Source: an uncultured Methanobrevibacter sp. (GTDB lineage Archaea > Methanobacteriota > Methanobacteria > Methanobacteriales > Methanobacteriaceae). From it: DNA of 63,842 nucleotides. Position 1 is the stretch's first letter. Every line of letters starts with the position of its first letter. Under the pieces are notes generated by a model. That model saw nothing but the letters and a program-made list of their open reading frames with translations, was not told where the DNA came from and searched no databases. Where the stretch lies: NCBI RefSeq assembly GCF_902764455.1, contig NZ_CACWVY010000017.1, positions 1 to 63,842 on the forward strand, written 5' to 3'. Of this stretch, positions 44,474 to 47,191 are shown piece after piece. Both the position numbers and the translations under genes were made by a program.

Positions 44474-44830
44474 TTAAAAATTAAATTGAATAACTGTTTT
44501 TTTTATTAAAGGGTTATTTGTTTTTAACCAGTTTTTGATGTCTTCATGCAGCTTCTTATTTTCTTCTTTTACAGTTTTCAGCTCATCGAAGAGGCTTTCG
44601 TATTTTTCTTCAATGAGATTTTCAAGTTCTTCATCATCATCCTTCAGCAGACGGTCAGTTAAGAATGATGAAATGGCAGCTGTGATTGCTGTTGTTAAAG
44701 TAAGGATTACGAAATTAAAATCATCAAACAGTCCGTATGATTTACTCCAGGCATACAGCACTCCTGTAAAAATAAGGATAGTTAAAAAGACTTCTAAGAG
44801 AGTTACATTATCACATTTCTTTTTTTGTCA
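44474..44830 (-). pseudogene. truncated potassium-channel fragment A
   Basis: The minus strand encodes V-F-L-T-I-L-I-F-T-G-V-L-Y-A-W (channel segment S5), then F-V-I-L-T-L-T-T followed directly by A-I-T-A-A-I-S-S-F-L-T-D-R and a coiled coil. The potassium filter G-Y-G and most of the inner helix S6 are missing from between T-L-T-T and A-I-T-A-A. S1-S4 are absent. The coiled-coil part is almost identical to fragment B: 44534-44688 matches 46503-46657 with one difference in 155 bases. The 95-codon frame cannot form a channel. Confidence 0.75.
44534..44688 (+). repeat. 155-bp direct repeat, left copy
   Basis: Identical to 46503-46657 except one position (A versus G in TCATCG[A/G]AGAGG). Offset is 1969 bases. 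Weaker similarity continues to about 44830 and 46800. The two copies bracket the PIN cassette. Confidence 0.9.
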
Positions 44831-45271
44831 ATCTCTGTTTCATGTTATCTGTATTTTAAGCATTCATTTTTTTTTTCAAAAATCGTATTTTTGTTATGAT
44901 GATAGCAGTAGTAATTAATTAAAATTCTAAATTCAATTCTCTGTTTAAATAAGGGTATTTTAAGTTTAAAGCAATATTTGTAGGGCAATGTAAATTTTAT
45001 CCCATTTCAAAGCAAAAATATTTAAATATATTGGTACAAATAATTAATTGAATATTTGTATCATCATTATAATTTTTTAGGTGTTATTTTAAATGTAATA
45101 TGAATCTCTCCGAAATTAGTGGTTATCACCTGTTATTAAAGTAGGAGTTAATTGATAAATTTCTGAGGGGAATATCTTGAAGCTATTGAGTTAGACTTTG
45201 TGAAATTAGAAGAAATATTGAATATTTAAAATTTAATATTCATTGATACAATTAATAAACTGGAGGAATAC
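44831..45271. promoter_or_regulatory. upstream region of the PIN cassette with an inverted repeat
   Basis: No gene is seen. TGAATATT at 45219-45226 and AATATTCA at 45235-45242 form an inverted repeat 30 bases before the first gene of the cassette, a possible autoregulatory operator. A TTTAAATATATT box lies near 45016. GGAGG at 45262-45266 is the ribosome-binding site. Confidence 0.45.
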
Positions 45272-45778
45272 ATGTCTGAATATGTTGTTAATGAAAATAG
45301 AAATATAATAGATGATTTTTTAGACATTTTTAAAAAGTTCTATTATTCAGTTAAATACAAATTTTCAAAAGATGATGGAATGTCTCTTGATGAATTTATA
45401 AATAAGTATTCGGAGGATGATGAATTTTTAAACTATATTGACTATATCAAATCATCTTTAAATGAAATTTCTGAAATGATGACTCAAATCAACTTTGATT
45501 ATGATGAATATTATAACTTTGCATCAATTAAAAAAATGATTATATACATTATTGATCATCTTGAAAAATATTTTTACTATTCTTCATTTATAGTTCTTCT
45601 TTTAAAAAATTTCAATGATTTAATTATTAAAGAAAAACAGTTGGATGATTATAAGGAAGAATATGAAAAATTTGATATTTTCTTATATGAACAAGAAGAT
45701 TACTTCTACACTGAAATCTTTGAGCATGATTCCAAATATGATGATGCAATAGACAACGTAACAAAGATATTGGGGTAA
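45272..45778 (+). CDS. helical acidic partner of the PIN nuclease
   Basis: A 168-residue protein, not recognised. It is rich in Asp, Glu, Lys, Tyr and Phe, and appears all-helical (D-E-F-I-N-K-Y, S-S-L-N-E-I-S-E-M-M, then I-I-Y-I-I-D-H-L-E-K-Y-F). No DNA-binding motif or signal peptide is visible. GGAGG precedes ATG. Its stop lies three bases before the PIN start, so the two are certainly co-transcribed. By position it may be the antitoxin or regulator of the PIN protein, but its length and acidity are unlike VapB-type antitoxins, and it might instead be a sensor. Confidence 0.65.
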   Translation: MSEYVVNENRNIIDDFLDIFKKFYYSVKYKFSKDDGMSLDEFINKYSEDDEFLNYIDYIKSSLNEISEMMTQINFDYDEYYNFASIKKMIIYIIDHLEKYFYYSSFIVLLLKNFNDLIIKEKQLDDYKEEYEKFDIFLYEQEDYFYTEIFEHDSKYDDAIDNVTKILG

Positions 45779-45781
45779 CTT

Positions 45782-46435
45782 ATGAATATATTTTTAGATA
45801 CTAATGTAATAATTGGTTATATCTATTCACTAGATGCATTACATTCTTCTTCTCGAAAAGCAATTGTTAGAAAAAGTAATAATTATTATTCTTTTCATGT
45901 TAATCAGGAAGTGATATGTGTTTCTCGAAGAAAAGATAGAGAATATTCTAAATTTCTAATTGAATTGGGAAAAATATTTAACCGATATGGCGATAATGAT
46001 TTCATCGACTTATCTGAAATTCACATTAAAGTTAACCAATTTGGCCAAATTGGAAAATTGGAAGTGGATAATATGCACTTGGCAGTTGATGCATTTAAAG
46101 TTAAAACAGAATTTAATAATTATTCACAGAATTTTGAATCAAAACATAGAAAATGCAGGATAAATTGCTTAAATGAAATGACTTGCATTCCAGCATATCA
46201 AAATAAAGATTCAAATGTCCTTGAGGTTATTGAGAAAAAATCTCTTAGAGATTATTTTCACGGTGAAGATGAAGATATTCTTTTTGATGTTCATGAATAT
46301 CTAAAAAATAATCCCATTTCAGATTTAACATTTATTAGCAACGATAAAGATTTCATTAAAGTCATTTCTAAATTAATTAATGTTTTGTCATTTAATAGAT
46401 ATATGTATCTTGGAGATTTTTCAGAATTTAGCTAA
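45782..46435 (+). CDS. PIN-domain nuclease
   Basis: A 217-residue PIN-like protein. M-N-I-F-L-D-T-N-V-I-I gives the first catalytic Asp (D6) and Asn (N8). An acidic centre around E-V-D-N-M-H-L-A near 98-105 and the C-terminal F-I-S-N-D-K-D-F near 188-195 supply the other metal ligands. PIN domains cut RNA. The protein is longer than VapC toxins (about 130), with an insertion near 110-165 containing a C-R-I-N-C pair and two more Cys/Met-rich turns. It is coupled to the upstream helical protein and lies between two channel fragments carrying a 155-bp repeat. Confidence 0.75.
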   Translation: MNIFLDTNVIIGYIYSLDALHSSSRKAIVRKSNNYYSFHVNQEVICVSRRKDREYSKFLIELGKIFNRYGDNDFIDLSEIHIKVNQFGQIGKLEVDNMHLAVDAFKVKTEFNNYSQNFESKHRKCRINCLNEMTCIPAYQNKDSNVLEVIEKKSLRDYFHGEDEDILFDVHEYLKNNPISDLTFISNDKDFIKVISKLINVLSFNRYMYLGDFSEFS

Positions 46436-46472: not shown

Positions 46473-47191
46473 TTACTTCTTTTTAACCAGTTCCTTAAGC
46501 TCTTTGATGTCTTCATGCAGCTTCTTATTTTCTTCTTTTACAGTTTTCAGCTCATCGGAGAGGCTTTCGTATTTTTCTTCAATGAGATTTTCAAGTTCTT
46601 CATCATCATCCTTCAGCAGACGGTCAGTTAAGAATGATGAAATGGCAGCTGTGATTGACCATATCCGACTGTTGTTAAAGTAACTATTACGAAATAAAAG
46701 TCATCAAACAGGCTGTATGATGTTCCCCAGATATACAGCGCTCCTGTGAAAATGAGGATAGTTAAAAAGACTCCTGCGAGGATTTTATCCAGATTTGTTT
46801 TTTTGATAAAGCGGTTAATGCCGTCAATGAACATGTTGAAGAGAGCTATTATTCTAAGTAATTTAAGAAGTCTGAAATATCTCAAAAGATTAATGCCCGG
46901 AATAACGATAGGTATGATAACATCAAAAGGAATGGATGCAATCAGGGCAAGTATATTATATTTTTCCTTTAAATATTCGGTTTTTGAAGCTGAAAAATAA
47001 AGGTTAATCAGCCACTCTGCCATAAGGAGTATGCAAACGCAAAAATCAAACATTTGAATCCCCATTTCAGTACCTTCCGGAAGGGTAAATAGCATTGCAA
47101 TTGTAATCAGCAGAATGTCGATAATGATTAGAATGTTCAAAGCGAACCAGATTATCATTTCAAAATTAACTTCCTGACCTTTGAATTTCAT
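46473..47191 (-). pseudogene. voltage-gated-type potassium channel gene B, filter-S6 region lost
   Basis: From ATG 47191 a frame encodes S1-S4-like segments with an arginine-bearing helix (L-L-R-Y-F-R-L-L-K-L-L-R-I), S5 (F-L-T-I-L-I-F-T-G), and pore with T-L-T-T-V-G-Y-G-Q. It then runs into a frame-shifted junction S-Q-L-P-F-H-H-S and stops at 46628. In another frame, the intact coiled-coil C-terminus (L-T-D-R-L-L-K-D-D-D-E-E-L) continues to a stop at 46473. Comparison with fragment A shows the same area after the filter has been deleted, with an 11-base difference at the junction. The product lacks S6 and should not conduct. Confidence 0.75.
46503..46657 (+). repeat. 155-bp direct repeat, right copy
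   Basis: Right copy of the repeat at 44534-44688, one mismatch. It covers the coiled-coil coding part of channel gene B. Confidence 0.9.

What the first reader, a model, noticed from the sequence alone, without database searches (positions are those of the whole stretch)
45219..46435. Possible new toxin-antitoxin type: PIN nuclease with an acidic all-helical partner
A 217-residue PIN protein with a Cys-containing insertion is coupled, with a three-base gap, to a 168-residue acidic helical protein that resembles no known antitoxin. An inverted repeat TGAATATT...AATATTCA lies just upstream, and the unit sits between direct repeats.
Basis: partly seen in the sequence, partly recalled or inferred. 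Interest (0 to 1): 0.7.

Follow-up and report, generated by a model that had tools for sequence, protein, structure and literature searches.

The report
New PIN-toxin/helical-antitoxin pair in gut methanogens
Two neighbouring genes in a gut methane-producing archaeon look like a toxin (an RNA-cutting PIN enzyme) and its protein antidote; the antidote belongs to a helical protein family not in the libraries searched, which almost always sits just upstream of this toxin and often outlives it, so a sizeable, undescribed family of toxin-antitoxin systems seems to exist in these microbes.

Summary
In detail: a 168-aa acidic helical ORF (45272-45778) and, 3 bp on, a 217-aa PIN ORF (45782-46435). Homologue searches support the core idea. 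The PIN family occurs in about 55-64 of 132-151 Methanobacteriales genomes searched; 50 of 53 intact PIN genes have an adjacent upstream 150-215-aa partner, and the partners form one family unmatched in Pfam, NCBIfam and the PDB. Pair phylogenies agree (Mantel r = 0.83) and dN/dS is about 0.2. Decay is one-sided: 21 loci keep an intact partner with the PIN broken or gone; none has an intact PIN with no partner gene, and one has a truncated partner. That is the signature of toxin and antitoxin. AlphaFold gives a VapC-like PIN and a helical-bundle partner without a recognisable DNA-binding domain. It works like type II VapBC but is not VapBC. Several supporting details fail: the cysteines are not conserved, the upstream inverted repeat is at chance level, and the direct repeats are duplicated pieces of a broken channel gene. 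The window's own PIN lacks 13 residues, including a Trp present in all 32 aligned homologues, so this copy may be attenuated. Toxicity itself is untested. I call it a new variant of a known kind.

The parts
45272..45778 (+). Partner gene (predicted antitoxin), 168 aa, acidic, all-helical bundle
   Evidence: ORF; family A4 of 46 members; AlphaFold mean pLDDT 83.4, seven helices; dN/dS 0.20 vs G002
45782..46435 (+). PIN-domain nuclease gene (predicted toxin), 217 aa; window copy has a 13-residue deletion
   Evidence: PF01850 2.4e-5; invariant D6 N8 E43 D163 D169 D188 across 33 members; best Foldseek hits VapC; 39-bp in-frame deletion vs G002
45219..45242 (.). Inverted repeat TGAATATT/AATATTCA; overlaps a TATA-like AT-rich stretch; not conserved
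   Evidence: chance-level frequency, no shared repeat upstream of homologous pairs; promoter reading is inference
45262..45266 (+). GGAGG ribosome-binding-like site of the partner gene
   Evidence: read from sequence; stretch conserved in G002
46062..46102 (+). Approximate place of the 39-bp in-frame deletion junction in the PIN gene (between ...DNMHLAV and DAFKVK...)
   Evidence: the missing stretch holds a Trp present in 32 of 32 homologues with letters there
44474..44800 (-). Left copy of a channel-gene 3' fragment (direct repeat)
46503..46780 (-). Right copy of the channel-gene 3' fragment, joined to the truncated channel ORF 46628-47191
   Evidence: relatives carry channel frames of about 240-310 aa

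Best explanation
The pair is a toxin-antitoxin module that works like a type II system. The downstream gene encodes a VapC-like PIN ribonuclease with a long helical insertion. The upstream, translationally coupled gene encodes an acidic helical-bundle protein that binds and inhibits it, probably with its conserved C-terminal part. When the antitoxin runs short the nuclease would cut cellular RNA (by analogy with VapC, tRNA or rRNA) and stop growth. Shown: anatomy, near-obligate pairing, co-inheritance, purifying selection, conserved catalytic acids, one-sided decay, predicted folds. Inferred: toxicity, binding, RNA target, which part of the partner binds, and the physiological role (addiction, phage defence or stress arrest). 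The window copy may be an attenuated toxin with an intact antitoxin.
For: Pairing: 50 of 53 distinct intact PIN ORFs have a same-strand upstream ORF of 150-215 aa, gaps -98 to +39, mode +4; the three exceptions are a contig end, a longer ORF call whose partner is found by profile, and an N-truncated partner. Partners of 47 of 48 loci form one BLAST-connected cluster. Co-inheritance: Mantel r 0.83, no permutation of 2000 above 0.16. Selection: dN/dS about 0.2 for both genes. One-sided decay: 49 complete pairs; 21 intact partners with PIN broken (12) or absent (9), contig ends set aside; no intact main-family PIN without a partner gene in place, 1 with a truncated partner that keeps its C-terminal half; 21 of 22 gives p = 5e-6, or 6e-5 weighting by gene length. 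Nuclease: invariant acids D6, E43, D163, D169, D188; top Foldseek hits are VapC. Fold: fused read-through model mean pLDDT 87.9, pTM 0.62; partner residues 151-160 rise from pLDDT 64 alone to 82 beside the PIN, in line with that part packing on the toxin, though the two alignments differ.
Against: No experiment; toxicity and binding were not measurable here. pTM 0.62 does not fix the interface. Many genomes are MAGs, so some 'broken' PINs may be assembly errors, although these should hit both genes alike. The 21 decay events are not all shown to be independent. No conserved operator and no DNA-binding domain, so the usual type II autoregulation is not supported. Not found in plasmid or phage collections or viral contigs, so mobility is indirect. 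The window PIN itself lacks a segment with a universal Trp.
Confidence: 0.82

Rival explanations
1. The two proteins are obligate subunits of a housekeeping or regulatory RNase (for RNA maturation or decay), the partner acting as scaffold or substrate adaptor rather than antidote.
For: Tight pairing, co-inheritance and purifying selection would also fit; PIN domains serve in RNA processing (established knowledge).
Against: Patchy presence in about 40% of genomes, several copies per genome, different chromosomal sites and frequent decay do not suit housekeeping. Loss is one-sided: for a two-subunit enzyme either gene should go first. Orphan partners stay under purifying selection (G122:C7 vs G002 dN/dS 0.24).
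Confidence: 0.08
2. The pair is an anti-phage abortive-infection system in which the partner senses a phage signal and releases the PIN nuclease; TA-like in form but defence by purpose.
For: TA modules often act in defence (PMC10440598); the pair is patchy and fast-diverging (identity down to 14-20%).
Against: No match to PADLOC defence families. Many copies sit between housekeeping genes rather than in defence islands. This is not exclusive of the main explanation.
Confidence: 0.3
3. The window pair is a degraded relic of a TA module: the 39-bp deletion has already inactivated the PIN and only the partner matters.
For: Deletion removes a Trp present in 32 of 32 homologues; low-confidence model stretch at the junction (pLDDT 57); toxin-first decay is the rule in the family; the flanking channel gene is broken.
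Against: Frame is kept, all catalytic acids remain, and dN/dS vs G002 and G116 is about 0.2 and 0.16.
Confidence: 0.45
4. The partner is a HEPN-like protein, so this is a HEPN-linked system.
For: Helical bundle; HEPN toxin 7ae6 appears at Foldseek rank 17; one subclade of partners has an R-x6-H motif such as RPEELISH.
Against: That hit is not significant (E 3.0); the motif is absent in the window partner and in 35 of 50 partners; no Pfam or NCBIfam HEPN hit.
Confidence: 0.07

Closest known systems
VapBC (type II TA with PIN toxin)
   Same: PIN nuclease with conserved acidic residues; antitoxin gene first, tightly coupled; top structural hits are VapC
   Different: Toxin 217-240 aa with a long helical insertion instead of about 130 aa; partner is a 160-200-aa acidic helical bundle with no AbrB/RHH/HTH/Phd-type domain found; no conserved operator
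PIN-COG2442 (DUF433) and other PIN-antitoxin pairs predicted by Makarova 2009 (PMC2701414)
   Same: New antitoxin family found by neighbourhood of PIN genes
   Different: Those antitoxins are small DNA-binding folds (3-helical bundle, AbrB-like, RHH, MerR); this partner matches no DNA-binding family
MNT-HEPN
   Same: Two-gene module with a helical-bundle member that is not DNA-binding
   Different: Here the catalytic protein is a PIN nuclease; HEPN motif and family hits absent in most partners
PanAT (Panacea antitoxins with varied toxins, PIN/VapC-like among validated nuclease toxins, PMC10440598)
   Same: Protein antitoxin of a family other than VapB neutralising a PIN/VapC-like toxin
   Different: Partner and the 290-aa sister partner do not match PF13274 or a Panacea profile

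Membership tests
Type II toxin-antitoxin (general) | Two-gene operon, antitoxin usually first, tight spacing | tested here: met
   50 of 53, mode +4 bp
Type II toxin-antitoxin (general) | Toxin gene not maintained without its antitoxin | tested here: met
   21 partner-only loci; no intact main-family PIN without a partner gene, 1 with a truncated partner
Type II toxin-antitoxin (general) | Patchy, multi-copy, moves between sites | tested here: met
   55 of 151 and 64 of 132 genomes; several copies per genome; different flanks
Type II toxin-antitoxin (general) | Toxin arrests growth and antitoxin neutralises it by binding | not testable with these tools
   needs expression and pull-down
VapBC | PIN nuclease with conserved acidic active site | tested here: met
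   PF01850 hit; invariant D6, E43, D163, D169, D188; Foldseek VapC
VapBC | Compact VapC of about 130 aa | tested here: not met
   intact members about 215-245 aa
VapBC | VapB antitoxin with DNA-binding domain (AbrB, RHH, HTH or Phd type) | tested here: not met
   46 members scanned against Pfam and NCBIfam, no such family; model is a long helical bundle
VapBC | Operator (inverted repeat) upstream | tested here: not met
   repeat at chance level and not conserved
Panacea (PF13274) | Panacea domain in the antitoxin | tested here: not met
   hhalign probability below 1%; profile search does not hit the 290-aa sister partners
HEPN | R-x(4-6)-H motif and HEPN family match | tested here: inconclusive
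   motif in 15 of 50 partners, absent in the window; no family match; weak fold similarity

The most novel reading that the evidence does not exclude
A broad archaeal superfamily of long PIN toxins exists whose antitoxins are non-DNA-binding helical bundles. In Methanobacteriaceae the antitoxin is the bare helical domain. In a sister branch and in another archaeal lineage (G163) it is a protein of about 290 aa whose N-terminal part (KLIYKI...WYKYG) resembles the sister partners and, in G163, whose C-terminal part resembles the bare helical domain. In one genus (g26) a lone homologue of the antitoxin has become a fixed single-copy chromosomal gene next to the thermosome gene. Support for the bridge is weak: 15.1 and 8.2 bits against best shuffles of 6.4 and 4.0.
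Probability: 0.35. Interest if true: 0.65.

Novelty: new variant of a known kind. Interest (0 to 1): 0.52.

Why it matters
It adds a new antitoxin family for PIN toxins, which are especially abundant in archaea, in host-gut methanogens that are hard to study and are targets of methane mitigation. The antitoxin seems to lack any DNA-binding domain, so it asks how such modules are regulated. The 21 partner-only loci offer a ready natural record of toxin-first decay, and complete pairs are short enough to test directly.

Tried and rejected
Panacea as identity of the partner or of the 290-aa sister partner: rejected. HEPN: not supported. Metal site from the cysteines: rejected, not conserved. Operator palindrome: rejected as chance level. 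Transposon ends for the direct repeats: not supported; they are channel-gene fragments and other pairs lack them. Phage or plasmid carriage: no hits in the collections searched. PDB sequence search with the PIN profile gave only coiled-coil noise, and with the partner profile only designed or coiled-coil proteins. Broad profile alignments A3 and A2 could not be used for contig scans because no block was conserved enough. Literature searches found no description of this pair in the held library; the main PIN classification paper is not held.

Full report
Observation. The window contains a 168-aa ORF at 45272-45778 and a 217-aa ORF at 45782-46435 on the + strand, 3 bp apart, the junction reading TAA-CTT-ATG. 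The downstream protein matches Pfam PF01850 (PIN) above the curated cut-off; the upstream one has no match above any cut-off in Pfam, NCBIfam or PADLOC. The organism is a Methanobrevibacter-like gut methanogen: the closest genome, G002, is Methanobrevibacter sp. RGIG2231 from goat (the same contig).

Family. With the window proteins alone, complete pairs were found in G002, G007 and G025, and the partner hit led to a divergent pair in G022. A PIN profile from five of these finds the family in 55 of 151 Methanobacteriales genomes, and a broader profile in 64 of 132 genomes of the phylum, in this search only in one family; a few of the weakest of these hits are ordinary VapC proteins. Among 53 distinct intact PIN ORFs, 50 have a same-strand ORF of 150-215 aa directly upstream, with gaps from -98 to +39 and most often +4. 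The partners of 47 of 48 loci form a single BLAST-connected cluster. The three exceptions are a contig end (G031), a longer ORF call whose partner is found by profile (G036), and a partner reduced to its last 97 residues (G155). Distances among partners and among PINs correlate at r = 0.83 against at most 0.16 in 2000 permutations, and dN/dS is about 0.2 for both genes in the window-G002 comparison.

One-sided decay. Setting contig ends aside, 49 intact partners sit before an intact PIN, 12 before a frameshifted or interrupted PIN, and 9 have no intact or partial PIN frame beside them; two of those nine keep a 21-residue PIN stub, in the window's own genome at C27 and in G122. In the opposite direction no intact PIN of this family stands without a partner gene: G103 has an unrecognised 161-aa ORF in the partner's place, G089 (L047) has a divergent but full-length partner, and G155 keeps the partner's C-terminal half. 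Five further PINs belong to a sister subfamily with a different, 290-aa upstream gene. Twenty-one of 22 one-sided losses gives p = 5e-6, or 6e-5 if weighted by gene length. A non-toxic two-subunit enzyme has no reason to lose the same subunit first each time; a toxin and its antidote do. This is the strongest argument here, and it is an inference: toxicity was not tested. Caveats are MAG assembly errors and possible non-independence of some events.

Nuclease and partner structure. Across 33 PINs the residues D6, N8, E43, D163, D169 and D188 never vary, which fits a live PIN active site. Because the two window genes lie in one frame, a read-through fusion (TAA read as Gln) could be folded with a block alignment of homologues: mean pLDDT 87.9, pTM 0.62. 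Foldseek against the PDB puts VapC structures on top (probability 0.97-0.98), though with E-values above 0.2, perhaps because of the insertion and the fused query. The partner alone is a bundle of long helices (pLDDT 83.4, pTM 0.78), with only non-significant PDB neighbours such as the flagellar export chaperone 1orj (TM 0.75 by target length, E 1.6) and, lower down, a HEPN toxin. Profile searches of the PDB and scans of all 46 partners against Pfam and NCBIfam find no antitoxin or DNA-binding family. Partner residues 151-160 are predicted with more confidence next to the PIN (82) than alone (64), and the FY motif (F145, Y146) is among the best conserved parts. This hints, no more, that the C-terminal part contacts the toxin, as in VapB.

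Details that do not hold. The inverted repeat TGAATATT/AATATTCA is real, but such repeats occur about once per kilobase in this AT-rich window and no shared repeat is found upstream of homologous pairs; it overlaps a TATA-like stretch, so it may simply be promoter sequence (inference). The cysteines of the PIN insertion are not conserved. The direct repeats are two copies of the 3' part of a channel gene, both lacking the stretch after the selectivity filter (read). The channel ORF here is 187 aa, against frames of about 240-310 aa in most relatives, and six other pairs checked have no such flanks.

The window copy. Compared with all close homologues the window PIN lacks 13 residues through a clean 39-bp in-frame deletion. 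The missing stretch carries a Trp found in all 32 other aligned members. The frame, the catalytic acids and low dN/dS remain. It may be an attenuated toxin, in keeping with toxin-first decay, or an assembly error; it should not be the copy used for a first test. The genome holds a second complete pair at G000:C36 and an orphan partner at G000:C27.

Relation to known systems. It works like VapBC (PIN toxin second, antitoxin first, coupled), but three defining or typical VapBC features were tested and not met: compact toxin, DNA-binding antitoxin, conserved operator. PIN-associated antitoxins proposed earlier are small DNA-binding folds (PMC2701414). Panacea, which neutralises many toxins (PMC10440598), was tested and rejected. 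I found no description of the pair in the held literature.

Wider picture. A sister subfamily of PINs in five genomes follows a 290-298-aa gene with a YYWYxHGPFS-like motif instead. In another archaeal lineage (G163) a related PIN follows a 292-aa protein whose N-terminus resembles that gene (15.1 bits, best shuffle 6.4) and whose C-terminus resembles the short partner (8.2 bits, best shuffle 4.0). This suggests, weakly, a common origin of both antitoxins. In one genus (g26) a lone partner homologue is a fixed single-copy gene next to the thermosome gene in the copies examined, possibly a domesticated antitoxin.

Verdict. A new antitoxin family paired with a long VapC-like PIN toxin: a new variant of a known kind, well supported by comparative genomics, with toxicity, complex formation, RNA target and biological role still to be tested.

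Noticed in passing
L150-L154 (G009:C20, G017:C51, G111:C50, G019:C56, G127:C289): Sister subfamily of PIN proteins (234-254 aa) directly after a 290-298-aa gene with a YYWYxHGPFS-like motif and no Pfam match: probably a second undescribed TA pair.
   Followed up: partly
L144-L149, L161 (genus g26): Single-copy partner homologue without a PIN beside it, fixed between the thermosome gene and the acetyl-CoA acetyltransferase region in the g26 genomes examined; possible domesticated antitoxin.
   Followed up: partly
window 44474-44800 and 46503-47191: Two copies of the 3' part of a K+-channel-like gene flank the pair, both missing the stretch after the selectivity filter; the channel is a broken gene or an assembly artefact.
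   Followed up: partly
L190 2139-3017 (G163:C69): 292-aa protein upstream of a related PIN in another archaeal lineage that seems to bridge the two partner families (weak scores).
   Followed up: partly
L191 813-2256 (G233:C41): A 269-aa PIN protein overlapping an upstream 223-aa helical ORF in a distant archaeon; same gene order, homology weak.
   Followed up: no
L163 1516-3254 (G107:C63): Partner-PIN-partner triplet: a second partner gene directly behind the pair.
   Followed up: no
L025, L039, L040, L042-L044, L073, L074: One subclade of partners carries an R-x6-H motif (RPEELISH type) reminiscent of HEPN proteins; absent in the window partner.
   Followed up: no
L059 (JAFRZY010000010.1): A contig filed under 'Bacilli bacterium RGIG2951' carries the same pair as Methanobrevibacter G002: probably a misbinned contig.
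   Followed up: no
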